From assembly GCA_937920545.1 (NCBI GenBank), contig CAKZUG010000069.1:1-58955 (forward strand): a stretch of DNA of 58,955 nucleotides. Direction: 5' to 3'. The notes under the pieces are model-generated. The model saw only the letters and a program-made list of their open reading frames with translations, searched no databases and had not been told where the DNA came from. Below, one piece after another: positions 2,339-14,871 of this stretch. The stretch's first letter is position 1; every line of letters starts with the position of its first letter. The DNA comes from an uncultured Saccharophagus sp. (GTDB taxonomy: Bacteria; Pseudomonadota; Gammaproteobacteria; Pseudomonadales; Cellvibrionaceae). Both the position numbers and the translations under genes were made by a program.

Positions 2339-3970
2339 TTGCAGGTGCGCATTATCTTGAAGACCACTAACCCTACACCTAACAGCTCAGCTAATCAGGT
2401 AAAAGCGCCACGGCTTTTACGGTCGGGCTTGATTGTTTCAACCATGACAATGTTATCGCGCGTACTGGGTTTAGTGCGCGATATTATTTTTGCCCGCTTT
2501 ATTGGTGCGGGTGGCGATGCCGATGCGTTTTTTCTTGCGTTTAAGATTCCTAATTTTTTACGTAGGCTCTTTGCTGAGGGGGCATTTGCACAGGCATTTG
2601 TGCCTGTATTAAGCGAATACCGTACTCGTGGCAGCATGGCGGCGGTGCAGCAGCTGATTAACCATGTGGCAGGCTGCTTGGGTTTTTCGCTTATTGTTAT
2701 TACCGTGTTTGCCATGTTGGCGGCCCCGGCATTAACCGCCGTGTGGGGTGCGGGTTTATTATGGCAAGGCGATATGGATAAATTTTGGTTAACCAGTGAT
2801 TTATTGCGTATTACCTTTCCCTATTTATTACTCATTTCATTAACCGGTTTTGCGGGTGCTATTTTAAACAGTTTTGACCGTTTTGCCGTGCCTGCCTTTA
2901 CCCCAGTATTACTTAACGTGTGTTTAATTGTTGCGGCTATTTTTGCCGCGCCGTTTTTTGAGCAGCCCGTATTTGCCTTGGCGTGGGGGGTGTTAGCAGC
3001 AGGCATGTTACAGTTTGTTTTTCAATTGCCTTTTTTACTGCATTTGGGCTTATTGCCAAAGCCTAAAATGGCGTGGCACGACCCCGCCGTTAAAAAAGTA
3101 TTGCTGCTTATGGCGCCCGCCATGTTTGGCGTATCGGTTAGCCAAATTAATTTAATGCTCGATACCGTGATTGCCACGTTTATCCCAGGTGATGGCAATA
3201 TCGCATGGTTATATTATTCAGACAGGCTAACCGAATTACCATTGGGCGTATTTGGCGTGGGCATTGCCACCATTATTTTACCGAGTTTATCAAGGCAATT
3301 TTCAGCGCAATCAGATAAAGGCAATACCGATTACACCCGCACCCTTAACTGGGCGTTACAGTGCGTTTTATTAATTGGTGTACCAGCAGCGTTAGCGCTC
3401 ATTATTTTGGCCAAGCCACTGCTGTTTACACTTTTTCAATACGACAAAACCACGGCGTTTGATGTGCATATGGCATCGTTAAGTATGCAAGCCTATGCCT
3501 GCGGTTTGGTGGCGTTTATGTTAATTAAAGTGTTAGCCAGCGCTTATTTTTCGCGCCAAGATACAAAAACACCTGTACGCATAGGCATTATTGCCATGGT
3601 GGTTAATATGGGGCTTAACGTGTTATTTGTGTTGCCGTTATATTTTATCTGGCAGGTCGGCCATGTTGGCTTGGCATTGGCCACGGCATGTTCGGCCACA
3701 CTGAATGCGTGGTTGTTATTTAGTGGTTTACGCCGCCGTGGTATTTTTATAGCGCTGGCGGGTTGGGGTATATTTATTGCGCGCTTACTGGCAGGCTGTG
3801 TCGCACTAGTCGCCAGCCTGCTTATAATTATGCAGTATTTACCCTCTTTTGAAGGGTTAAATTGGAGCGAGCGCGTGAGCTTAATGAGCCTTACCGTTAC
3901 GGCAGGCTTAGCCAGTTTTACTTTGGCCATCATACTGGCAGGCATGCGCCCACGGCATCTACGGCATTAA
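2339..3970 (+). CDS. murJ: Lipid II flippase MurJ (MviN)
   Basis: Integral inner-membrane MOP-superfamily flippase that moves lipid-linked peptidoglycan precursor to the periplasm. The N-terminal MTMLSRVLGLVRDIIFARFIGAG region and the later FAEGAFAQAFVPVLSEYR are family hallmarks, and about fourteen hydrophobic segments follow. The family length is near 510 aa. The start is uncertain because there is no ATG: TTG 2339, GTG 2345 and TTG 2357 are all in frame, and TTG 2357 has an AGGTG about nine bases upstream, so the true protein may be 537 rather than 543 aa. In related genomes ribF usually follows directly; here about 10.8 kb intervenes. Confidence 0.93.
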   Translation: MQVRIILKTTNPTPNSSANQVKAPRLLRSGLIVSTMTMLSRVLGLVRDIIFARFIGAGGDADAFFLAFKIPNFLRRLFAEGAFAQAFVPVLSEYRTRGSMAAVQQLINHVAGCLGFSLIVITVFAMLAAPALTAVWGAGLLWQGDMDKFWLTSDLLRITFPYLLLISLTGFAGAILNSFDRFAVPAFTPVLLNVCLIVAAIFAAPFFEQPVFALAWGVLAAGMLQFVFQLPFLLHLGLLPKPKMAWHDPAVKKVLLLMAPAMFGVSVSQINLMLDTVIATFIPGDGNIAWLYYSDRLTELPLGVFGVGIATIILPSLSRQFSAQSDKGNTDYTRTLNWALQCVLLIGVPAALALIILAKPLLFTLFQYDKTTAFDVHMASLSMQAYACGLVAFMLIKVLASAYFSRQDTKTPVRIGIIAMVVNMGLNVLFVLPLYFIWQVGHVGLALATACSATLNAWLLFSGLRRRGIFIALAGWGIFIARLLAGCVALVASLLIIMQYLPSFEGLNWSERVSLMSLTVTAGLASFTLAIILAGMRPRHLRH

Positions 3971-4060
3971 TATCAAGCACGATAAAAATACACAGTACAA
4001 AATGAATAGTAAAAAACGAACAGTAAAAAATGAACAATAAAGATAATAAGAGGAATACAT

Positions 4061-5311
4061 ATGAATATTTTTTTTAAACACACGTTAAGTTTTTTATGGG
4101 TGTTGGGTTTTACTTACGCTATTAGCGCCAGTGCAAATGAGGAAGTATATGAGTCTGTAAATAAGGTGGTGCATGAGGGAGCGCATGAGGGAGTGCATGA
4201 GGTTACACATACACCGTATGCACATTCATACCAAGAGCAAAATGGTATGGTGGTCATAGAAGCCGAAAACTATGCCACACAAACCCAAGCCGATATACGC
4301 CGTTGGATTACTTTTAGCAAGGGCAATACACCTAGCGAGGCCAAGCAACTGGCCGACGCCGATGCCCCTCACACAAAAGGAGCCAGCGGCGGTAGTTATA
4401 TTGAAAGCCTGCCCGACACCCGCGTTAATCATAATGAAGCCCTTATTAAAGGCGAGAATTTTTCGAATGCCGCTGGCGCAATGGCCATACTGACCTACCC
4501 CGTTTATTTTTCACAGGCTGGCCGTTATTACATTTGGGGCAGGGGCTTTAGCACCGGGCCAGAAGACAACGGCTTTCACTTTGGCTTAAATGGCCAGTGG
4601 CCCGATACCTCACAGCGTATGCAATTTTGTAAGGGCAAGCATGCATGGACATGGTCATCACAGCAACGCCGCCCCAAAAGCCATTGCGGTACACCTAATA
4701 CCCTATGGGTAGATATTCCTAGCGCTGGGCAACATACCTTTATGTTATCCATGCGTGAAGATGGCGCCGAGTTAGATAAAATTATTTTAACAAAAGATAA
4801 AAAGTTTATTCCCAAAAAAATAGGCCCCGATCAAACCCTGTATACCCCCGCGCCACTACCGAAAAAAACAGGATATTTTAGTATTAATCACTACGTTTAT
4901 AAGCTGCATGCCACCAGTACTTTTTCTGACGTGGGTGATTTTAGTCACGATAAAAAGCATAACGTATTATTTATTGATAGCTCCAATAAAAAACATCAAA
5001 ACGTCTATATTACCGCCACCCAAAAAATGAAAACAAAAGGCCGAGCCAAAACCCTGGAGGCGAGCTTAGTTACCTTAAGCGATGTGGCGGGCGAATCTGA
5101 ATACCGCGTACTGCATAATGGTAAACTCATTGCCCAAGTAAAAAATAATCCGGCAACTCAAGATTACCAAGAGCAAGTATTACCACTGGGTGAAATTACC
5201 TTTAAAAAAGGCGATACGCTAGACGTGCAAGCCAAAGCTATGACCAACGGTAAAATACAAGGCCAGTATTCACGCGGCATGTGGCGCGGTGTGGTTTTAC
5301 AGCGTAAATAA
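4061..5311 (+). CDS. Secreted protein with carbohydrate-binding-like beta-sandwich module
   Basis: Signal peptide (about residues 1-25, ending near SASA/NEE), then a short His/Glu-rich linker made of repeated VHEGAHEGVHEV units. A module of about 200 residues begins VVIEAENY and contains GGSYIESLPD, YYIWGRGFSTG and a terminal AELDKIILTKD. This pattern matches galactose-binding-like sandwiches of the CBM6/35 type and those attached to GH115-like proteins. The C-terminal 130 residues look like a second beta-rich domain. No catalytic domain was recognised. A good AAGAGG ribosome site precedes the ATG. Probably binds polysaccharide at the cell surface or outside the cell; ligand unknown. It is the first gene of the accessory block after murJ. 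Confidence 0.6.
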   Translation: MNIFFKHTLSFLWVLGFTYAISASANEEVYESVNKVVHEGAHEGVHEVTHTPYAHSYQEQNGMVVIEAENYATQTQADIRRWITFSKGNTPSEAKQLADADAPHTKGASGGSYIESLPDTRVNHNEALIKGENFSNAAGAMAILTYPVYFSQAGRYYIWGRGFSTGPEDNGFHFGLNGQWPDTSQRMQFCKGKHAWTWSSQQRRPKSHCGTPNTLWVDIPSAGQHTFMLSMREDGAELDKIILTKDKKFIPKKIGPDQTLYTPAPLPKKTGYFSINHYVYKLHATSTFSDVGDFSHDKKHNVLFIDSSNKKHQNVYITATQKMKTKGRAKTLEASLVTLSDVAGESEYRVLHNGKLIAQVKNNPATQDYQEQVLPLGEITFKKGDTLDVQAKAMTNGKIQGQYSRGMWRGVVLQRK

Positions 5312-5342
5312 CTATAAGGTTAAATACTACCGAAACAGTTGA

Positions 5343-5441
5343 AAAGAATACCCTTGAGTATGATGCACGCTGTCAATATACCCCTATACGCTCTGCGTCG
5401 GCATCCTGCCTCTGATGGCTTCATACCCAAGGGTATTCTTT
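5343..5441 (+). repeat. Hairpin repeat unit, conserved core with 21-bp arms
   Basis: Arms 5343-5363 and 5421-5441 are complementary at 20 of 21 positions and enclose 57 nt. The core (CACGCTGT...GTCGGCATCCTGCCTC...GATGG) resembles the cores at 7220-7268 and 12683-12746 (the latter inverted), while the arm sequences are unrelated to theirs. It lies just downstream of the carbohydrate-binding-like gene and could act as a terminator, although no clean U-run follows. Confidence 0.65.
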
Positions 5442-5853
5442 CTTTGTGTCTTGTAAATAACTATATGGCTAAATAGCTATACGGTTGAATAAACCGATTT
5501 AATTTGAGAACTTAATTTGAGAACTTAATTCGAGCGTTTGATTTAAGATCTTAATTTAAAGGCTTGATTCACATTTTTACTATTACAGTTTGGTATGTTG
5601 TTTCAATGTTTTTTTTAATATAACAACACGGTAGATTATTACTGAGATGGTAAATTGAAAAGACTAAAGTCTTTAGCACTAATTAATTTAAATGCAAGCG
5701 TTAACCTTACGTTACTAAAATACGTATATAGCCAGTGAATTTATACCCGTGTAAAAATAGGCAAATAAAAAATGTTATACGGTATTTTCCTATATTTATA
5801 ATGCCCTGATTTTCCCGCATAAAAGGGTAATAACTACAGTGAGAGATTCGTAC

Positions 5854-5901
5854 GTAGAGAGGCCCGTAGAGAGACCTATAGAGAGACCCGTAAAAAAACC
5901 A
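5854..5901. repeat. 12-bp imperfect tandem repeat (4 units)
   Basis: Units GTAGAGAGGCCC, GTAGAGAGACCT, ATAGAGAGACCC and a degenerate GTAAAAAAACCA lie head to tail, ending 20 bp before the transglutaminase-like start. Function unknown; it may be simple slippage. Confidence 0.7.
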
Positions 5902-5921
5902 GTAATGAGGCTTAGCACTAA

Positions 5922-6776
5922 ATGAAAAAGCTTAAAATTATTCATCAAACCCAATATGATTTTACAAGCCAAGTTGAATTACTACCGCATACCTTAAGGC
6001 TGCGCCCGCGAGAAGGGCACGAGATGCGTATCGAATATTCAAAGCTCACCATAAGCCCTAATGCATCATTACGTTGGCAGCGAGACGTCGAGGGCAATTC
6101 TGTTGCAACAGCCCAGTTTAATGGTAAAACACAACAGCTCATTATTCATAGCGAGGTAGTGATACAGCAATACGCCTCATCACCTCATGATTTTTTAGTA
6201 GCCGATTACGCCGTGAATTACCCCTTCCAATACAGCGTAGAAGATCAGGTGCTTTTATCCCCTTACTTACAAGATTTAAGCACCACGCAATCACCGCAGG
6301 TTAATAGCTGGGTTAGTTCACTTCACAGCAATATGCAGGGGCAGCAAACGTTTTCACTTTTACTCAACCTCAATCAACGTATTTATCAAACAATAGGCTA
6401 TCAAGTAAGGGAAGAAGAGGGTGTTCAAACCGCCGAAAAAACACTTTCGTTAGGGACAGGTTCTTGCCGAGATAGCGCAAGCTTATTTATGGCAGCAGCA
6501 AAAAAACTCGGGTTTGCCGCAAGATTTGTAAGTGGGTATATTCATTCAAACGATGTTGTTGCGCAGTCTGGTTCTACCCATGCTTGGGCAGAAGTATTTA
6601 TCCCGGGAGCTGGCTGGAAAGGGTTCGATCCTACTATTGGTGATATGGTGGGTGAAAATCACATCGCAGTCGCAGTGGCGCGCCTGCCCGAGTCAGTCCC
6701 CCCCGTTTCTGGCGACTATTTAGGTGTGCCAGAGTCTAAAATGACCGTTAATGTATGGGTAACACAAATAAAATAA
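5922..6776 (+). CDS. Transglutaminase-like cysteine protease family protein
   Basis: Two parts: an N-terminal beta-rich region (residues 1-110, starting KKLKIIHQTQYDF...LLPHTLRLRPREG) matching the bacterial transglutaminase-like N-terminal domain, then the papain-like core. A full catalytic triad is visible: Cys182 in GTGSCRDSA, His220 in STHAWAEVF and Asp236 in GFDPTIGD. No signal peptide, so it is probably cytoplasmic. Length (284 aa) fits the family. Relatives often sit beside alpha-E and circularly permuted ATP-grasp genes; here it is alone. Whether it is a protease, amidase or cross-linker cannot be told from sequence. Confidence 0.85.
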   Translation: MKKLKIIHQTQYDFTSQVELLPHTLRLRPREGHEMRIEYSKLTISPNASLRWQRDVEGNSVATAQFNGKTQQLIIHSEVVIQQYASSPHDFLVADYAVNYPFQYSVEDQVLLSPYLQDLSTTQSPQVNSWVSSLHSNMQGQQTFSLLLNLNQRIYQTIGYQVREEEGVQTAEKTLSLGTGSCRDSASLFMAAAKKLGFAARFVSGYIHSNDVVAQSGSTHAWAEVFIPGAGWKGFDPTIGDMVGENHIAVAVARLPESVPPVSGDYLGVPESKMTVNVWVTQIK

Positions 6777-6899
6777 AGAAAAAAACGTAGCCATGTAAGA
6801 TAGGAAGATAAAAGATAAGAAAGGAAAAAGGACGGTCATAAAGTTTCTTACCTAAATTTAATAAATTTTCTGCCTCAAATTTACTCCTTTAGATATTTT

Positions 6900-6926
6900 C
6901 TCGTTCCCATGCTCTGCGTGGGAATG
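6900..6926. repeat. Short palindromic repeat (TTCCCATGC/GCGTGGGAA type)
   Basis: TCGTTCCCATGCTCTGCGTGGGAATGC folds into a stem with one G-U pair. The same kind of sequence (CGTTCCCACGCTCTGCGTGGGAATGC) is, from memory, a very common dispersed REP-like palindrome in many Proteobacteria. It marks the left side of the accessory cassette. Confidence 0.6.
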
Positions 6927-7203
6927 CATATTGATTGCCTTGCTTACATATACAGTAGGTTGGGATGCCTCAACACTTTAGCTTGCAACATGTTAAATAA
7001 CGTTAACTCCTTGTTCCTATTCTCTATGCGAAAATATTATCCAGTAAAGCAAAAAAAATATGGGTGTCCCCGATTTCTGCTGTCCCCGATTTTGTGCTCT
7101 CGGCTTTCTTCATGCGAAAATGTGACTCAATAAAGCGTAAAGAGTATGGGCGTTTCATATTTTTAAAATATAAGTATATTGCGGTCTGCGTCAGAACATA
7201 TCA

Positions 7204-7284
7204 CCTCGGCATCACGAACACGCTGTAAATACCTCCCTGTAAGCTCTTGTCGGCTCCTGCCTCCAAAGGTTCGTGCTGCCGAGG
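7204..7284 (+). repeat. Hairpin repeat unit A (left copy)
   Basis: Arms CCTCGGCATCACGAAC and GTTCGTGCTGCCGAGG pair with one mismatch around a 49-nt core containing ACGCTGTAAATACC, CTGTAAGCTC and CTGCCTCC. Same core family as 5343-5441. Confidence 0.8.
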
Positions 7285-7409
7285 AAATATCTTCTTTTGA
7301 ATTGATCATATTGAAGAGTGATATGTGGGCGTTTTTTTAAATGCATGTGACTATAAAATAAAGTGTTTTTGTTCTTCAAACCTGTAGAAAATGTATAAAA
7401 AACAGTGCG

Positions 7410-7491
7410 GATGCTTATAGCAAACCATCGGGGGCAGGACGCCGATGTGAGCTTACAGGAATATATTTACAGGATGTTTGATATGGTTATC
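7410..7491 (-). repeat. Hairpin repeat unit B (left copy, decayed)
   Basis: Core lies in reverse orientation to unit A (GGCAGGACGCCGATGTGAGC...). Left arm GATGCTTAT is intact, but the partner reads ATGGTTATC instead of ATAAGCATC, so pairing is weakened. Position matches unit B at 12663-12766. Confidence 0.7.
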
Positions 7492-8004
7492 GACGCTTGA
7501 TTAATGTGAGCAGCTATCGGTGATATCGTATATAAAAGGCCGTTTTTTAGATTAGCGAAGCTGGGGATAACCAAAGAAAAATATATGGGTGTTTTCGATT
7601 TTTCTCTGGGTGTTTGGCAATATTTGCAGCAATAAACGACTAGATAAGTTAACTCTTAGAGGCCAAAATAAAGTGACGGCATAGTGGCCGATACATGCTC
7701 CTGCTGTATCGGCATTCACAACATCCTTGGCACTTGCAGCTGTACTGTATGGTTCATAACATTGAGAAGTTATGAAAATTGCAGCTTAACAAGTAAATGG
7801 CTTAAAAGGGGCTAGAATACCTAATAAAAGCGATGTTCGGTATGAATAATATACGATTTTAGGATTTTGGTGATCAATATTTTGATTTACCATAACTTTC
7901 AAATTGTAATGAAATTTTTAAAAAATAGAAGACGAGGTAAGATATTAGTTTTTTTGGCTAATTTTCTACAGCCTCGTTAGTCAACATTACTAAAGGAGAT
8001 AGAA

Positions 8005-8607
8005 GTGTCAACAATAGATAAAAATGGAATGCTAATAGACACTAAAGTGAAGTTAAAACGCTATAAAAGTATCGAGCACGGTACTTTGCCAGCGATACGC
8101 GCAATACTGGTGCATCAAACTGATGCTCCAACAGCTCAACATACATTTAACGGTTACAATGCAGGTGGAAATGGAGCTCATTTTCTTATCTCTAAATCCG
8201 GTGAAATATATCAAACAGCGAGCTTGAATATGCGCTGTTACCACGTTGGGAGATTGATCAAATCGAAATGCTTATCGCTAAATAAGGCAAACTGTAAAAA
8301 TCCAGCGATGACTAAAATTCTTACCCTGTCGTGGGCAGCTCAAATCAAAGCCTTGGACACGCATGAGCGGAGCAAACAGTATCCAGATCGATTTCCGGTT
8401 AATAGTGATTCCATTGGGATAGAGCTTGTTGGTAAGCATGTAGACGATAAAACCTATCAGGCAGTAACGTCCCAACAGAATACATCGCTTCAGTGGCGAG
8501 TAGGTGAACTTAACAAACATTTCAGTACAACCAGCACCGATGTTTATCGGCATCCAACAGTGTCATATAAAAATCCAGGTGAAGCGAGTACTGCAAAATG
8601 GAAATAA
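8005..8607 (+). CDS. N-acetylmuramoyl-L-alanine amidase-like protein (Amidase_2/PGRP fold), possible toxin effector
   Basis: 200 aa, almost entirely an Amidase_2 (AmpD/PGRP-type) zinc amidase domain, predicted to cut the bond between N-acetylmuramic acid and L-Ala in peptidoglycan. Seen: His37 in ILVHQTDAP, GGNGAHFLISKSGEIYQ, YHVGR, then SIGIELVG and YRHPTVSYKNPGEAS with His183 and Lys189; this last motif departs from AmpD's KTDPG. There is no signal peptide. GTG start with a strong AAAGGAGAT. It overlaps the following lipoprotein gene by 10 nt, so the two are probably co-translated. Lack of export signal plus a lipoprotein partner suggests a secretion-system effector with immunity; a phage endolysin remnant or AmpD-like recycling enzyme is the alternative. 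Confidence 0.8.
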   Translation: MSTIDKNGMLIDTKVKLKRYKSIEHGTLPAIRAILVHQTDAPTAQHTFNGYNAGGNGAHFLISKSGEIYQTASLNMRCYHVGRLIKSKCLSLNKANCKNPAMTKILTLSWAAQIKALDTHERSKQYPDRFPVNSDSIGIELVGKHVDDKTYQAVTSQQNTSLQWRVGELNKHFSTTSTDVYRHPTVSYKNPGEASTAKWK

Positions 8608-8963
8608 TTCGCAAGGCTCCTCTTCTACTCGTATTTTTACTGTTAGTTTCTTGTGCTCAACACCAAAAATATTCAGACGTATACGTAGAATATTTTCAGT
8701 CGGAAGACATTGGTGTATGCGGGCCATCCGATGTCAACTTGAATAACGGTGAAGCTAGTCAATTCTTTTCAAGATCGAAAAAGGTTGAGTATAGAGTAAT
8801 ACATGACCACTACAATGTAGCGCCATGTTATATAGAAGGAATACTTACACTTAATGGTAAAGTTTGTGACTGGAAAATCCAAGCTTCTTCCATTGGAAGC
8901 ATAAAATGTAACGACGAAACAAACTATTATGTTTGTGACTCTTGTGAGGATCTATTTAATTAA
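8598..8963 (+). CDS. Small cysteine-rich lipoprotein, candidate immunity partner of the amidase
   Basis: 121 aa with a type II signal peptide: KAPLLLVFLLLVSC, lipidated Cys predicted at residue 19, next residues AQH. The mature part has several Cys residues (CGPSD, CYIEG, VCDWK, IKCND, VCDSCEDLF) that could form periplasmic disulfides. No family recognised. The ATG lies inside the end of the amidase gene (10-nt overlap), which implies translational coupling. A hairpin follows at 8973-9016. Function is inferred only from position: periplasmic inhibitor of the amidase. It is not proline-rich like Rz1 spanins. Confidence 0.7.
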   Translation: MEIIRKAPLLLVFLLLVSCAQHQKYSDVYVEYFQSEDIGVCGPSDVNLNNGEASQFFSRSKKVEYRVIHDHYNVAPCYIEGILTLNGKVCDWKIQASSIGSIKCNDETNYYVCDSCEDLFN

Positions 8964-9309
8964 AATGGCGCTCTAAATGGGCACAAAAAATCCTGCGGAT
9001 TTTTCGGTCCATTTAGCTTGGTGTTCAGGCTATAGAAAAATTAATAATTATCGGATTTTAGCCTTATTTTCATAGCAAGTATTCGGTGATAGCCATATTT
9101 TTCACTTATATTCAACATAATATTTCATTTGTCAAATTTATGGGTGTCCTATTTTTTTTTGTTCCAATTCCTCCAGTTAATCTCGTAATGTAAAAGTCGG
9201 CAGGTTTAATATTGCTGGCTGGTTAGATACAATGATTGCCTGAGGTTTACTCCAAAGATATGTTTATTTAAATTTTATAGATACTCAATGATTTTCAAAA
9301 GGAAGAGAA
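8964..9309. other. Spacer between the two cassette halves
   Basis: Holds the nested hairpin at 8973-9016, then AT-rich sequence with another ATGGGTGTCC motif near 9141. No open frame of note. AGGAAGAG just upstream of 9310 serves the next gene. Confidence 0.4.
8973..9016 (+). terminator. Probable terminator after amidase-lipoprotein pair
   Basis: Nested stems: CTAAATGG/CCATTTAG outside and AAAAATCC-TGC-GGATTTTT inside, with a U-rich 3' arm, placed 10 bp after the lipoprotein stop. Confidence 0.55.
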
Positions 9310-10800
9310 ATGAATCAAAACGATCCAAACAGTATGTTAACTATAATCATTCTTCTCGCAGTAGTAATGCCATTATTTCTTGCTTTTATATTATGTTGGA
9401 AATTAAATAAAGCAAAAAAAAGTTTAGATGAGTCTAAAGCCAATATTGCCGATTTGCTTGTGGATAAGGCAGCGTTGACCGAAAAATTAGCGCCTATAGC
9501 TGATGTTGAGCGCGAAGTGATACGCTTGAAATCGCTATCAGAGTCTGATATGCAAGAAGCTCGACAGGCTTTACAAAAAGTCAAAGAGGAATCTGAAGAG
9601 GTTACGAGTAAAGGGTTGTTAGAATCAAAAATAATAATAGATAAAGCTAATCAGCAGGCGCAGGAAATTGCAGGGGCAGCGCTTGAGGCAAAAGCGAAAG
9701 CTGAGCAATATAGCGCTGCAATTAAGGCAATGAAAAATACAATTGAAGGTTATAAAGACGACTATATTATTCCTAACCATTCTGTTTTAGATGATTTAGC
9801 AGACGAATATAGCCATAAAGAGGCAGGTGAAAACCTCAAGCGTCAACGTAAACAAGTTAAAGATATGGTTAAGAAAAATCGTGCAGGAGAATGCGATTAC
9901 TCAGAAGCTAAGCGTCGATCTTATGCTATCCATTTTGCAGTTGACGCCTTTAATGGCAAGGTGGATTCTGCCTTAGCAAAAGTCAAACATGATAATTTTG
10001 GTAAAATTAAACAAGAGATAATAGATGCGTTTGCGCTGGTTAATCATAATGGTGAGCCTTTTCGTAATGCTCGTATTACACAAGAGTATTTAGACGTAAG
10101 GCTAGAAGAGCTAAAGTGGGCAGTGACTACCCATGAGTTACGTCAACAAGAGTTAGCCGAACAAAAAGAAATTCGTGATCAAATCCGCGAAGAAGAAAAA
10201 GCACAGAGAGAAATGAACAAGGCGATTAAAGAGGCTGAAAAAGAAGAGCGTTTATTGCAAAAAGCTTTAGAGAAAGCACGCAAAGAGTTAGCTGATTCAT
10301 CAGAAGAGCAAAAGCAACAGTATGAAGCTCAGTTAATTGAGCTAGAAGCGAAGTTAAGTGAAGCAGAAGAGAAAGGGCAGCGTGCTCTTTCTATGGCTCA
10401 GCAAACAAAGCGTGGTCATGTTTATATTATTAGTAATATTGGAAGTTTTGGTGAAGAGGTTTTTAAGGTCGGTATGACTCGTCGATTAGAGCCTTTAGAC
10501 CGTGTAAAAGAGCTAGGTGATGCTTCTGTACCATTTAGTTTTGATGTGCATGCAATGATATATAGTGATGATGCTCCTGCGCTAGAAAAATCGCTTCATC
10601 GAATACTCCATGATAAATCTGTTAATAAAATTAATGCGAGAAAGGAGTTTTTTCGATTGCCGCTTAGCGATATAAAAAAAGCAGTGTTAAGTGAGAATAC
10701 ACAAGATATACATTGGACATTAAAAGCTGAAGCAGCTGAATATCGTGAGTCTATGGCAATGTCTCATACAAAAGATAAGACATCAGTTAATGTGTTATAA
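9310..10800 (+). CDS. Membrane-anchored coiled-coil DUF4041/T5orf172 (GIY-YIG-like) protein
   Basis: 496 aa. Residues 10-30 form one transmembrane helix (IIILLAVVMPLFLAFILCW). A long coiled coil follows (to about 150), then a region like DUF4041 (about 150-290, with NHNGEPFRNARITQEYLDVRLEELKWAV), a second Glu/Lys-rich coiled coil, and from about 368 a T5orf172/MUG113 domain. That domain shows HVYIISN, EEVFKVGMTRR, RVKELGDASVPFSFDVHA and a conserved Glu in ALEKSLHRIL, consistent with a GIY-YIG-type nuclease fold. Proteins of this kind occur in prophages and defence islands; their role is poorly defined. AGGAAGAG ribosome site before the ATG. Its neighbour 173 bp on is a KAP NTPase. Confidence 0.85.
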   Translation: MNQNDPNSMLTIIILLAVVMPLFLAFILCWKLNKAKKSLDESKANIADLLVDKAALTEKLAPIADVEREVIRLKSLSESDMQEARQALQKVKEESEEVTSKGLLESKIIIDKANQQAQEIAGAALEAKAKAEQYSAAIKAMKNTIEGYKDDYIIPNHSVLDDLADEYSHKEAGENLKRQRKQVKDMVKKNRAGECDYSEAKRRSYAIHFAVDAFNGKVDSALAKVKHDNFGKIKQEIIDAFALVNHNGEPFRNARITQEYLDVRLEELKWAVTTHELRQQELAEQKEIRDQIREEEKAQREMNKAIKEAEKEERLLQKALEKARKELADSSEEQKQQYEAQLIELEAKLSEAEEKGQRALSMAQQTKRGHVYIISNIGSFGEEVFKVGMTRRLEPLDRVKELGDASVPFSFDVHAMIYSDDAPALEKSLHRILHDKSVNKINARKEFFRLPLSDIKKAVLSENTQDIHWTLKAEAAEYRESMAMSHTKDKTSVNVL

Positions 10801-10994
10801 AATAAACTTTTTTGGTGGCTCAAAGAAAAAAGTAATGCTTGGGATTTTTTTAATGTCTAGATAATGCTTATGAGTGGGTCTTTTGTAATTAAGGTTTTTT
10901 TAATAATAGATGGATATCTTGGCTATTAATAGTGTAGTAATTGTCAACAATTAAGTGAATGGTTAATTTATGAGTGAAGAGGCTTTATAACAAC

Positions 10995-12338
10995 ATGGAT
11001 ACTATTAAATCAATATTTAACGATAGAGACGAGTTTAAGCGTAAAGATATTGCTGTCAAAGTGAAATCGCTCTTGGAATCCGATATAGATATATCACCTT
11101 TGGTAATTGATGGCGGCTGGGGTACAGGTAAAACTGAATTTTGTCATAAGCTTATTAACCTCATGCGTTGCGATGATGCACATCATTTAATTTATATTGA
11201 TGCATTCAAGGCAGATAATGCTAATAATCCATTAATGACAATATTATCTGAAGTTATTAAAATATTACATGATCAAGAAAGTAAAAGCAGTTTTATGAAA
11301 AAGGCCATACCAGTTGTTCGTTATAGTTTTAAAGCATCGGCAAAAGCTGTTGTATCACATGTTTTAAAACAAGATTTCGCTGATGCAGTTGATGACTTTG
11401 ATAAAGAGATTCAAAAAAGTGCAGATAAAGTTATTGATGCCGCGGTTGAGTCAGTATTAAAAGATCATATCAAAGCAGAAGAAAGCTTGAGGGCATTACA
11501 ATCTTCATTGGAAGAAAAGGCAAGTTCTAAACCTATTATGCTTTTTGTTGATGAGTTAGATCGTTGTAGGCCAAATTTTGCTATTGATATGCTTGAGCTA
11601 ATAAAGCATGTCTTTGATGTTAAAGGTGTTGTCTTTGTGCTGGTAACCAACACGCAACAGTTAAAAGCCTCTGTTAATCATTGTTATGGCCACGCGGTTG
11701 ATGCTCGTCGCTATTTAGATAAATTTATTAAGTTCAGGTTTGAGCTGTCTCCTTATTCTAATAAAATCTCTAATTCGCCTATTTTAGCGTCAAAAAAGCA
11801 TTTTGTGATGCTTGCAAAAGATAGGGGGTGTCTACCAGACAGCCTCTTAAGCGATTCGCAGTTCAAAGAGGCTATTGATCATTTGATTAAACATCGCTCT
11901 ATTTCACTTAGAGAGATAGAAACTCTTATTTTGCATATTCAGATTGCACAAACTCTTTCTCATTCAGAGTTTTTTATCGAAAGAGCGGGGCCAGAGTATG
12001 CGTTGTTAAAACTAATCGGTGTAATGTTGGTTTGTTTTGAGCCTGAGTTATTAACGGCCATTAAACAAAATAGTGTCGATGCTGATGTGTTGGGTAGGTT
12101 TTTAGGTGTAGAAAGTATACCAGTGCTCGGCGGGACGATTAAACCTGCAATTATTAATGTGATAATGATTTTTATTGCTAAAGATTGTCATAAAAATACT
12201 AATAAATATATACCACAACAAGAGCAGGAACAGTATTGGAATGAGTATATGCGTTTTAAAAGTGTAGTTGATGCTTTTGATCCAGGTGAGGCTTTAAATT
12301 TGGTTATCCAAGCAGTAGACATAATATCCTTTAAGTGA
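10995..12338 (+). CDS. KAP-family P-loop NTPase
   Basis: 447 aa from the ATG at 10995; a GTG at 10974 would add seven residues, and AAGAGG sits 12 bases before the ATG. Walker A GGWGTGKT is near residues 40-47 and an extended Walker B, IMLFVDELDRCRP, near 181-193; both are typical of KAP (Kidins220/ARMS/PifA) ATPases. Many KAP proteins carry transmembrane helices between the Walker motifs; here that insert (FMKKAIPVVRYSFKASAKAV...) is amphipathic rather than clearly membrane-spanning. PifA of plasmid F, which excludes phage T7, belongs to this family. Likely partner of the preceding membrane protein; AT-rich like the rest of the cassette. Confidence 0.85.
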   Translation: MDTIKSIFNDRDEFKRKDIAVKVKSLLESDIDISPLVIDGGWGTGKTEFCHKLINLMRCDDAHHLIYIDAFKADNANNPLMTILSEVIKILHDQESKSSFMKKAIPVVRYSFKASAKAVVSHVLKQDFADAVDDFDKEIQKSADKVIDAAVESVLKDHIKAEESLRALQSSLEEKASSKPIMLFVDELDRCRPNFAIDMLELIKHVFDVKGVVFVLVTNTQQLKASVNHCYGHAVDARRYLDKFIKFRFELSPYSNKISNSPILASKKHFVMLAKDRGCLPDSLLSDSQFKEAIDHLIKHRSISLREIETLILHIQIAQTLSHSEFFIERAGPEYALLKLIGVMLVCFEPELLTAIKQNSVDADVLGRFLGVESIPVLGGTIKPAIINVIMIFIAKDCHKNTNKYIPQQEQEQYWNEYMRFKSVVDAFDPGEALNLVIQAVDIISFK

Positions 12339-12467
12339 TGAATAATGTATGAGTATGCAGTTTTTTGGCTAGTTTTATCAACATTGAAAAGTTGAGGCAG
12401 AAATCAGCAGAAGAAATGAGATCAGGACATCCATATTTTATTTTGCGGTCTGCGTCAGAACATATCA

Positions 12468-12548
12468 CCTCGGCATCACGAACACGCTGTAAATACTTCC
12501 CTGTAAGCTCTTGTCGGCTCCTGCCTCCAAAGGTTCGTGCTACCGAGG
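12468..12548 (+). repeat. Hairpin repeat unit A (right copy)
   Basis: Arms CCTCGGCATCACGAAC and GTTCGTGCTACCGAGG around the conserved core; two mismatches in the stem. Equivalent to 7204-7284. Confidence 0.8.
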
Positions 12549-12662
12549 TAATATCTTCTTTTGGATTTACCATATTGAAGAGTGATATGTGGACGTTTTT
12601 TCAAATGTATGTGACTATAAAATAAAATATGTTTGTTCTTCAAACCCGCAGAAAATGTATAA

Positions 12663-12766
12663 AAAACAGTGACGATGCTTATAGCAAACCATCGGAGGCA
12701 GGACGCCGACGTGAGCTTACAGGGAGGTATTTACAGCGTGTTTGATATAAGCATCGGCACTGTTTT
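12663..12766 (-). repeat. Hairpin repeat unit B (right copy, intact)
   Basis: Arms 12663-12682 and 12747-12766 pair at 19 of 20 positions (AAAACAGTG-A-CGATGCTTAT type) around a 64-nt core. The core is the reverse complement of the unit A core: it contains CTTACAGGGAGGTATTTACA and GGCAGGACGCC. Confidence 0.8.
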
Positions 12767-13021
12767 AGTGTGAGCTAGCACCCGCTTGTCGTATATTAAA
12801 AGCCTTTTTTAAATAGGCTAGGTTGGGTATAACTAATGAAAAATATGGTTGTCTCTTATTTCTCGATTTTCCCCGATTTTTTCCCTCGTTTTTTTCTTCG
12901 ATTGTTTCTTTAAGTGAAAAATTAAGCAAGAATCGTGTTGATGAAAAAGGGGTTTAAAACGCAGGCGGTCAGAAGCAGGAAGAAACAGGTAAGAGGCAAC
13001 AAACAGGCGGATGTTTTCATT

Positions 13022-13077
13022 GCTCAGTGTTTCACGTTTTTTTATCATCACAATATAAACGGCGTGAAACACTGAGC
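13022..13077. repeat. 15-bp perfect inverted repeat beyond lldD
   Basis: GCTCAGTGTTTCACG (13022-13036) and CGTGAAACACTGAGC (13063-13077), loop 26 nt. It lies 41 bp beyond the lldD stop and may serve as its terminator, though there is no U-run on that strand. Confidence 0.6.
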
Positions 13078-13118
13078 GCAAAAACTAAACGTGTTATCTA
13101 AAATATTAACTAAATATG

Positions 13119-14261
13119 CTAACCAAAAGTATCAACCAGTGAATCACGGCTGATGTCTGAAATGCTTTTTGTGCTGGTTAATGTCATGGCGACGCGCATT
13201 TCTTTTTCATAGAGGTCGATGAGGTTTTCGACGCCTTTTTGGCCTTCTGCTGCTAGTGCATAGATAAACGATCGGCCTAGCATGGTGCAATCCGCGCCTA
13301 GTGCAAGCATGCGTATGACGTCTAAACCGTTACGAATACCAGAGTCGGCTAATATTTTAATGTCGCCTTTTACTTTGTCGGCAATGCGTGGCAGCGCTTT
13401 CGCGGATGACATGACACCATCAAGTTGGCGGCCTCCGTGGTTAGATATCACGATACCGTCGGCACCAAAGCTGACGGCATCTTTAGCGTCGTCGGCATCT
13501 AAAATACCTTTAATAATCATCGGGCCATCCCAAAAATCACGAATCCATTCTAAATCTTTCCATGAGATAGACGGGTCGAAGTTATTGCCTAACCAGCCAA
13601 TGTAATCTTCAAGTTTGGTGGGGGAGCCGCGGTAGGTCGAAATATTACCTAGGTCGTGTGGTTTGCCCAGTAGGCCCACATCAAATGCCCATTGTGGGTG
13701 GCGCATTGATTGAAAGATACGCCTGAAGGCGGCGTTGTTTCCGCTCATGCCTGAATGCATATCACGGTAGCGCGCCCCAGGAATGGGCATGTCAACGGTA
13801 AAGACAAGTGTTGTCACGCCAGCTTCTTTAGCGCGCTCTAAAACGTTTTGCATAAAGCCACGGTCTTTTAACACATAAAGCTGAAACCACATTGGGCGGT
13901 TAATGGCTGGGGTCACTTCTTCAATTGGGCAAACCGACACGGTCGACATGGTAAAAGGAATGCCTTTTTTATCGGCTGCTTTGGCTGCTTGTACTTCACC
14001 GCGTCTGGCATACATGCCTGTTAAGCCAACAGGGGCCAGCACCATGGGTAGGTCGAGTTTTTCGCCAAACAATTCGGTGCTTAAGTCGAGTGTCGACATA
14101 TCATTGAGTACACGTTGCTTAAGCGCGATGGACTCTAAATCTTCTACATTTTGTTTCAGTGTGCGCTCACTGTATGAGCCACCATCAATATAATGGAATA
14201 AAAAAGGAGGGAGCTTGGCTTTCGCCGCTTTACGATAATCGGTTGGAGAGGAAATAATCAT
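13119..14261 (-). CDS. lldD: FMN-dependent L-lactate dehydrogenase
   Basis: 380 aa, alpha-hydroxy-acid oxidase family; oxidises L-lactate to pyruvate at the inner membrane and passes electrons to quinone. Family features: an N-terminal [24 protein letters not shown]-site segments [14 protein letters not shown] and FQLYVLKDR, substrate-binding [13 protein letters not shown], and the active-site [10 protein letters not shown] with His and Arg, followed by LADSGIRNG and [10 protein letters not shown]. Slightly shorter than E. coli LldD (396 aa). The usual partners (permease, GntR regulator, D-lactate dehydrogenase) are not adjacent. Other alpha-hydroxy acids cannot be excluded, but the overall match to LldD is strong. 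Confidence 0.9.
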
Positions 14262-14871
14262 TATTAGTACCTAGATAAAAAGCTAGCGCATGGAAACAGC
14301 GATAAAAAAGAAGGGTAGTTTACTGAAAATTCGCTTTAATGAGAAACGATCATCGGCGTATTGAGTGAAATTAGCAGAAAAAACCCTATAAAATGCAGGT
14401 TTTTATTGGCCATTTGGTGCGCTGCGCATAAATTGAAATTGCTCACTGAGTATTGCGTTATCGCATTGCATTATTGTACCGCATTGTTGTGCTGCATTAT
14501 TGTATTGAATTATTGCACCGCGTTAAGGTGCCGCCAAGAGTATGCTTGGCCATGCCAATGATACGTTTATTTTTTGTGTCAATATGAGCGTTTCGTGCAT
14601 TTAAAACAGCCTTGTTTGTTGTGTTGATTTGGGTTATTAGCGCAATCTTACGTGTGAATTTATGCTTTTTTACGTGCGTAGGCGCTAATGTAAATCGATG
14701 ATTTTGTATTTCATGCGGGTGGGGTATACTTGGCGGCATTTTTTGTACGTATAAGGTTGCTTGTTATGCCTTATGCCGCTTATGTGATTGTTTAATCGAG
14801 ATAAAACCGCCTTTATGGTTAGTACGCGCACTGTAGATAATACGAAGCCAGTTAACATTACGCCTCTGTCG
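14262..14871. other. Spacer before ribF
   Basis: About 600 bp, divergent promoter region of lldD and ribF. The clearest structure is the 13-bp tandem array at 14466-14517. In-frame codons from 14788 to 14871 could extend ribF upstream, but they are not conserved-looking. Confidence 0.4.
14466..14517. repeat. 13-bp imperfect tandem repeat (4 units)
   Basis: Units TTGCATTATTGTA, CCGCATTGTTGTG, CTGCATTATTGTA, TTGAATTATTGCA; a partial fifth begins CCGCG. Lies in the lldD-ribF spacer. Role unknown. Confidence 0.7.

What the first reader, a model, noticed from the sequence alone, without database searches (positions are those of the whole stretch)
9310..12338. T5orf172/DUF4041 membrane protein plus KAP NTPase: candidate undescribed defence pair
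A membrane-anchored coiled-coil protein ending in a GIY-YIG-like T5orf172 domain is followed, same strand, by a KAP ATPase. PifA, a KAP protein, excludes phage T7, and T5orf172 proteins are frequent in phage/defence regions. A membrane sensor or nuclease driven by an ATPase switch would fit an abortive-infection logic. I do not know a named system with exactly these two parts.
Basis: partly seen in the sequence, partly recalled or inferred. Interest (0 to 1): 0.7.

Follow-up and report, generated by a model that had tools for sequence, protein, structure and literature searches.

The report
SNIPE nuclease beside unrelated KAP ATPase
Two genes side by side are a relative of a known membrane-bound enzyme that cuts phage DNA as it enters the cell, and a separate ATPase of a candidate anti-phage family; they look like independent cargo that landed in one small genomic island rather than an undescribed two-part immune system.

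Summary
ORF 9310-10800 encodes a 496-aa protein with one N-terminal membrane helix, a coiled coil, DUF4041 and a C-terminal T5orf172/GIY-YIG domain. ORF 10974-12338, same strand, encodes an intact KAP P-loop NTPase.

The first protein is not undescribed: it matches PD-lambda-1 over nearly its whole length (E 3.4e-124). PD-lambda-1 was renamed SNIPE in 2026: a single-gene, non-abortive membrane nuclease that cuts phage DNA during injection (PMC13190303). The catalytic Glu is kept (E414 = E426 here). The KAP protein is PADLOC candidate PDC-S20 (E 1.2e-164).

No co-occurrence beyond chance was seen. SNIPE is in 0 of 38 other KAP-bearing genomes and near 0 of 80 viral KAP loci; a KAP gene is near 3 of 80 viral SNIPE loci, one adjacent. 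Each separately occupies the published repressor-integrase cargo slot of K139/P2-like phages (26 of 80 and 34 of 80).

Best reading: two independent single-gene defence modules in an island between murJ and ribF. Interest is low.

The parts
9310..10800 (+). SNIPE (PD-lambda-1) homologue, 496 aa, predicted membrane-anchored GIY-YIG nuclease
   Evidence: PADLOC PDLC03976 E 3.4e-124 over residues 13-491; PHROG 1847 E 1.2e-135; 40% identical to the PD-lambda-1 protein of Escherichia phage PhiR26_1 in the alignment, much more alike in the nuclease domain
9334..9399 (+). N-terminal membrane helix of SNIPE (about residues 9-30)
   Evidence: hydropathy maximum 3.05 at residues 10-28; helix in the model
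9934..10101 (+). DUF4041 (promotes DNA binding and probably binds tape measure proteins in E. coli SNIPE)
   Evidence: Pfam PF13250 1.7e-15; role from PMC13190303
10414..10686 (+). T5orf172 / GIY-YIG nuclease domain
   Evidence: Pfam PF10544 3.4e-16
10585..10587 (+). codon of Glu426, equivalent to catalytic E414 of E. coli SNIPE
   Evidence: invariant in the 24-row alignment, window included
10974..12338 (+). KAP P-loop NTPase, PDC-S20 family (likely start ATG 10995)
   Evidence: Pfam KAP_NTPase 5e-51; PADLOC PDLC04956 1.2e-164
11112..11135 (+). Walker A GGWGTGKT of the KAP NTPase
   Evidence: W-G-T-G-K invariant in 12 of 12 rows
11535..11555 (+). Walker B IMLFVDE of the KAP NTPase
   Evidence: D186-E187 invariant in 12 of 12 rows
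7175..7474 (+). left 300-nt direct repeat bounding the low-G+C segment
   Evidence: the genome holds 44 matches, these two included, the others much shorter
12439..12738 (+). right 300-nt direct repeat, 92-93% identical to the left one
8005..8963 (+). Amidase_2 gene (8005-8607) and overlapping lipoprotein-like gene (8598-8963), other passengers of the same segment
   Evidence: the pair recurs without SNIPE or KAP nearby in another genome of the family

Best explanation
The locus is a small acquired island holding two independent single-gene phage-defence modules. The first is a SNIPE homologue. By homology it sits in the inner membrane with its DUF4041 and GIY-YIG domains in the cytoplasm and cuts phage DNA as it is injected, probably guided by the phage tape measure protein; the host genome held here shows no ManZ. 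The second is a KAP-family ATPase of the PDC-S20 family. It most likely acts alone as a nucleotide-driven phage-exclusion or sensor ATPase of the PifA kind (a weak inference, about 0.35 on its own). The two are neighbours because both are recurrent cargo of the same kinds of mobile elements, above all the repressor-integrase slot of K139/P2-like phages, not because they form one machine. Shown here: the identities, the intact catalytic motifs, no co-occurrence above chance, the shared cargo slot in viral contigs, and the island at the murJ-ribF site. Inferred: all activities, and how this copy arrived.
For: SNIPE identity: PADLOC E 3.4e-124, E426 = E414, domain order as in PMC13190303. SNIPE is described there as one gene and direct defence; the held main text has 'KAP' 0 times. 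KAP identity: PDC-S20 1.2e-164, PifA profile 1.1e-18. No coupling: among 390 genomes of the order, KAP in 10 and SNIPE in 15, overlap only the window's own genome; 0 of 38 other KAP genomes carry SNIPE; 0 of 80 viral KAP loci have SNIPE and 3 of 80 viral SNIPE loci have a KAP gene; 0 of 80 integrase-anchored loci have both (5 SNIPE, 1 KAP). Shared slot: the same integrase family lies within 2.5 kb downstream, same strand, in 26 of 80 viral KAP and 34 of 80 viral SNIPE loci; the slot is published as a defence hotspot (PMC9122126 section 12). KAP without SNIPE elsewhere: a Salmonella integrase/primase island, between hsdS and hsdR in L022, L023 and L125. Island: G+C 0.36 against 0.44 for the rest of the window; murJ and ribF lie 10.8 kb apart here, but their matches lie within 325 nt in 13 of 20 family relatives.
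Against: One independent phage locus (L255) has SNIPE followed 192 nt downstream on the same strand by a KAP gene, the same layout as the window, though that KAP is divergent (31% identical to the best-matching of 12 KAP queries). The samples are small: 0 of 38 is not a depletion either (Fisher p = 0.62 against 14 of 389), so the data show no enrichment rather than avoidance. Only the best 80 of 314 KAP and 80 of 135 SNIPE viral relatives were kept, many loci end shortly after the integrase, and they hold redundant phages. No integrase or repressor match was found in the window, so a phage origin of this copy is inferred; the amidase upstream does match phage endolysin families (best E 8.3e-10). 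No activity was tested, and the solo function of the KAP protein is unproven.
Confidence: 0.8

Rival explanations
1. A two-gene system in which the KAP ATPase regulates or powers the SNIPE nuclease at the membrane.
For: Same strand, 173-194 nt apart; a second, independent SNIPE-KAP tandem in a phage contig, L255, gap 192 nt; the KAP family also sits between hsdS and hsdR, i.e. next to another DNA-cutting system.
Against: No coupling seen in 390 order genomes, 38 KAP genomes, 80 viral KAP loci or 80 viral SNIPE loci beyond 3 of 80. The KAP gene of the L255 tandem is divergent (31% identity to the best-matching KAP query). Phages with closely related SNIPE genes carry other cargo, or none, in that place (L254, L257, L262). 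E. coli SNIPE is described as acting alone (PMC13190303).
Confidence: 0.07
2. Relic of a decayed K139/P2-like prophage cargo region: repressor, integrase and structural genes lost, SNIPE and KAP kept for the host. (This is a version of the best explanation that fixes the route, not a competing function.)
For: Several of the nearest viral SNIPE relatives (61-70% best-segment identity: L253-L255, L257-L259, L261, L262) lie upstream of such an integrase; a KAP homologue is in the same slot in L115.
Against: None of the four integrase or six repressor queries matches the window; the best match to the L255 integrase in the genome is 32% identical on another contig. The closest KAP relatives by identity (53-55%) are in type I RM operons, not in this slot, so the two genes may have different sources.
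Confidence: 0.35
3. The KAP gene is a stray piece of a type I restriction-modification operon, functional only with its Hsd partners.
For: The two relatives found in the genome-contig scan lie between hsdS and hsdR; a distant third does too (L125).
Against: Most KAP relatives examined lie in no such operon: 3 of 30 distinct genomic loci had Hsd neighbours with the queries used, a lower bound, and 0 of 80 viral loci did.
Confidence: 0.1

Closest known systems
SNIPE / PD-lambda-1 (PMC13190303, which credits an earlier screen; that this is the screen of PMC9519451 is recalled, its held text gave 0 matches for the name)
   Same: Nearly full-length profile match, N-terminal membrane helix, coiled coil, DUF4041, C-terminal GIY-YIG with the catalytic Glu.
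   Different: Divergent N-terminal half, as is usual among SNIPE homologues in the paper; host genome without a detectable ManZ (EIID) gene at 84.3% completeness; a KAP gene downstream.
PDC-S20 (PADLOC candidate family)
   Same: Full-length match 1.2e-164.
   Different: Nothing tested separates it; no paper with the name was found in the library searched (0 papers).
PifA (F-plasmid T7 exclusion; role recalled, not read)
   Same: KAP P-loop core; PifA profile E 1.1e-18 over residues 36-259 of the 454-aa reading.
   Different: Only about positions 35-254 of a 720-position profile match.
Tmn (KAP-family NTPase defence; passages of PMC11846954 seen)
   Same: KAP family, phage defence.
   Different: Tmn has two transmembrane domains; the window KAP shows no strong membrane helix by hydropathy (best 19-residue mean 1.95). 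No direct comparison was made.
RdrA of RADAR
   Same: Closest solved fold to the KAP model: Z 18.3, rmsd 4.3, 286 aligned; the next non-RdrA row is Z 12.7.
   Different: 13% identity, RdrA is about twice as long, Foldseek TM-scores are low (0.42 at best for RdrA rows), and no adenosine-deaminase partner was looked for.
Repressor-integrase defence hotspot of K139-like P2 phages (PMC9122126)
   Same: Both gene families occupy this kind of slot in viral contigs.
   Different: In the window no integrase or repressor match is present.

Membership tests
SNIPE (PD-lambda-1) | N-terminal membrane anchor with the rest cytoplasmic | tested here: met
   One strong hydrophobic helix at residues about 9-30, helix in model; orientation not testable. 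The paper reports no predicted TM in 34% of homologues, so this is typical, not strict
SNIPE (PD-lambda-1) | Central DUF4041 | tested here: met
   PF13250 at 209-264, 57.1 bits against cut-off 27
SNIPE (PD-lambda-1) | C-terminal GIY-YIG nuclease with catalytic E414 | tested here: met
   T5orf172 369-459; E426 aligns with E414
SNIPE (PD-lambda-1) | Full-length similarity to the family | tested here: met
   PDLC03976 residues 13-491, E 3.4e-124
SNIPE (PD-lambda-1) | Cuts phage DNA during injection, direct defence | not testable with these tools
   needs plaque and injection assays
SNIPE (PD-lambda-1) | Association with ManYZ (E. coli SNIPE; not required against all phages in the paper) | tested here: inconclusive
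   No EIID (PF03613) in the host genome, control rings in 3 of 14 genomes, E. coli among them, but the genome is 84.3% complete and association itself is not testable
KAP P-loop NTPase / PDC-S20 | KAP domain with Walker A and B | tested here: met
   PF07693 174.1 bits against cut-off 20; W-G-T-G-K and DE invariant in 12 of 12 rows
KAP P-loop NTPase / PDC-S20 | Full-length match to PDC-S20 | tested here: met
   PDLC04956 residues 8-452, positions 1-447 of 450, E 1.2e-164
KAP P-loop NTPase / PDC-S20 | Anti-phage activity | not testable with these tools
   candidate family only
PifA | Full-length similarity beyond the NTPase core | tested here: not met
   by the PADLOC profile the match covers positions 35-254 of 720
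Two-gene SNIPE-KAP system | Recurrent adjacency of orthologues across genomes | tested here: not met
   in the samples searched: 0 of 38 other KAP genomes, 0 of 80 viral KAP loci, 3 of 80 viral SNIPE loci with one adjacent

The most novel reading that the evidence does not exclude
PDC-S20-type KAP ATPases are plug-in partners of DNA-cutting defences: they slot between hsdS and hsdR of type I restriction operons and, twice independently (this window and, with a divergent KAP, phage contig L255), directly behind SNIPE, where they would license or power cleavage of incoming DNA at the membrane.
Probability: 0.07. Interest if true: 0.6.

Novelty: new member of a known kind. Interest (0 to 1): 0.22.

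Why it matters
As found, it adds a SNIPE homologue in a draft genome with no detectable ManZ gene, and shows that a SNIPE gene and a KAP gene reached the same small island. If the KAP protein did act with SNIPE, it would reveal a regulated form of a defence that recognises phage DNA by its place of entry; the co-occurrence data give no support for that. The side observation that the same KAP family sits inside type I restriction operons is a testable lead on an uncharacterised defence candidate.

Tried and rejected
Two-gene system: rejected on co-occurrence. Of 45 KAP genomes other than the window's own (union), 38 were given. The other 7 were in the order draw and are not among the matches, which by its tallies searched the same draw for SNIPE. 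The threshold for SNIPE was 1e-30 and 1e-20.

Operon evidence: the promoter and terminator scan gave nothing above shuffles.

Solved relatives by sequence: none for either protein at E 0.01. The fold search with the SNIPE model gave no match at E 0.001; GIY-YIG rows (Slx1) appear only at E 1.0 and above. Its long helices make that model hard to search.

One search was a first check of SNIPE and Hsd genes in the viral KAP loci; it printed nothing and held no positive control, so it was replaced, which does (window, L131 and L022 ring).

Literature: 'PDC-S20' 0 papers; 'DUF4041' with 'KAP' 0 papers; 'PD-lambda-1' with 'P2-like' 0 papers; 'KAP NTPase' with 'type I restriction' 3 papers, listing only, none on this by title. 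Statements on what is in print rest on these searches of an open-licence library only.

An empty insertion site within the genus could not be looked for: no other genome of that genus was shown in the lists.
Full report
What is there. ORF1 (9310-10800) carries DUF4041 and a T5orf172/MUG113 domain, and ORF2 (10974-12338) a KAP NTPase domain. ORF1 has one strong membrane helix near its N terminus, and its AlphaFold2 model shows that helix, very long helices, the DUF4041 region and a C-terminal mixed alpha/beta domain. ORF2 has no comparably hydrophobic stretch (best 19-residue mean 1.95 against 3.05).

ORF1 is SNIPE. PADLOC names it PD-Lambda-1 over residues 13-491 with E 3.4e-124. PMC13190303 (abstract, the first three of thirteen parts of the text, sections 9, 10 and 29, and passages read) reports that PD-lambda-1 was renamed SNIPE. 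[quoted passage not shown] In the alignment with the PD-lambda-1 gene of Escherichia phage PhiR26_1, whose residue 414 is the Glu of that motif, the window residue is E426. It is invariant in a 24-row alignment, window included. The held main text of the paper does not contain the word KAP. The host genome held here, 84.3% complete, has no EIID/ManZ match, while the control search finds it in 3 of 14 named genomes, E. coli among them. If it works, this SNIPE may therefore rely on tape measure proteins or another entry protein; that is inference.

ORF2 is a PDC-S20 KAP NTPase (E 1.2e-164) with partial similarity to PifA (E 1.1e-18, NTPase core only). Its model (mean pLDDT 79.6, pTM 0.62) resembles RdrA of RADAR best: Z 18.3, rmsd 4.3, 286 aligned residues, against 12.7 for the first non-RdrA row; Foldseek TM-scores for RdrA are low, 0.42 at best. 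This is a shared ATPase fold, not a shared function. My reading of it as a stand-alone, PifA-like exclusion ATPase is an inference; I put it at about 0.35.

Do they belong together? In 390 genomes of the same order, KAP relatives at E 1e-30 are in 10 and SNIPE relatives in 15; the only genome with both is the window's own. Leaving that one out, 0.32 genomes with both would be expected by chance; with it, one or more has probability 0.33. In 369 class genomes and 398 phylum genomes the PDC-S20 profile at E 1e-40 finds 10 and 29 genomes, own included in each. SNIPE is in 0 of 38 of the other KAP genomes (38 of 45 were given, see Tried and rejected). The same query matched 15 of 390, so it works; 0 of 38 is not a significant depletion (Fisher p = 0.62). 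None of 30 distinct KAP loci with flanks has a SNIPE match nearby (L022, L023, L050-L058, L112-L130; L111 repeats the contig of L023), nor have L070, L071 and L072 within the stretch fetched. None of 11 fetched of 15 non-own genomic SNIPE loci has KAP within about 7 kb. In the viral collection, the best 80 of 314 KAP relatives and the best 80 of 135 SNIPE relatives were kept, with up to 8 kb on each side. SNIPE is near 0 of 80 KAP loci, and a KAP gene is near 3 of 80 SNIPE loci: L255 adjacent, L275 and L296 about 6 kb or more away. As a yardstick, 80 loci chosen by the integrase alone (best 80 of at least 592) hold SNIPE in 5, KAP in 1 and both in none; 3 of 80 against 1 of 80 gives Fisher p = 0.62. 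These samples are picked by similarity, not at random, and hold redundant phages.

Why they are neighbours. The same integrase family lies within 2.5 kb downstream on the same strand in 26 of 80 viral KAP loci and 34 of 80 viral SNIPE loci. In phage contigs with closely related SNIPE genes, the space between SNIPE and integrase holds nothing (L254), a KAP gene (L255), or quite other genes (L253, L257, L262). PMC9122126 (search listing, passages and section 12 read) describes such a slot, between cI repressor and integrase of K139-like P2 phages, as a defence hotspot; that these contigs are of that phage type is my inference from the gene order. The KAP gene also occurs without SNIPE in a Salmonella integrase island, on an Enterobacter plasmid that carries a SNIPE gene about 26 kb away, and between hsdS and hsdR of type I restriction operons (L022, L023, L125; the Hsd names of L022 and L023 are my reading of the translations).

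The island. murJ and ribF are 10.8 kb apart in the window. In 20 family relatives their matches are at most 325 nt apart in 13, 1.5-5.0 kb apart in 5, and murJ is not within the roughly 6 kb fetched upstream in 2; none of the nine other window proteins tested matches there. The stretch between the two 300-nt repeats has G+C 0.36 against 0.44 for the rest of the window. The repeats belong to a dispersed family with 44 matches in the genome, these two included, but only this pair shares the full 300 nt; the next longest match is 142 nt. None of the four integrase queries matches the window; the best match of the L255 integrase in the genome is 32% identical and on another contig. The upstream amidase matches phage endolysin families (best E 8.3e-10), so some phage input to the segment is possible.

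Verdict. A real and correctly read gene pair, ordinary in kind: a SNIPE homologue and an independent KAP-family defence candidate. The mechanism of the first is known from its E. coli relative; that of the second is open. Caveats: the host genome is a draft of 154 contigs, all functions are inferred, and a rare lineage-specific partnership cannot be excluded. PMC9519451 and PMC11846954 were seen as passages only.

Noticed in passing
8005-8963: An Amidase_2 gene and a lipoprotein-like gene that overlap by 10 nt, inside the same repeat-flanked segment. The pair recurs in one other genome of the family (L415 7886-8877; 49% and 31% identity) without SNIPE or KAP in the stretch fetched, and a partial amidase match lies on another contig of the own genome (L416). 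It could be an effector-immunity or a lysis pair; which is not known.
   Followed up: partly
L022 1940-10110; L023 5271-13491; L125 4936-12382: KAP NTPase genes of the PDC-S20 type sit between hsdS and hsdR of type I restriction operons, in two closely related operons and one distant one, suggesting an accessory part of some type I systems.
   Followed up: partly
7175-7474 and 12439-12738: Two 300-nt direct repeats, 92-93% identical, bound a 5.3-kb low-G+C segment; shorter pieces of the same repeat occur at many other places in the genome (44 matches in all).
   Followed up: partly
3970-14788: The murJ-ribF junction appears to be a tolerated insertion site in this family: 10.8 kb here, 1.5-5.0 kb in 5 of 20 relatives, at most 325 nt in 13.
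   Followed up: yes
L069 7083-9511: Two SNIPE genes in tandem in one genome of the order (G309).
   Followed up: no
L255 7896-11120: A phage contig with SNIPE followed 192 nt downstream by a divergent KAP gene, the only adjacent SNIPE-KAP tandem seen outside the window.
   Followed up: yes
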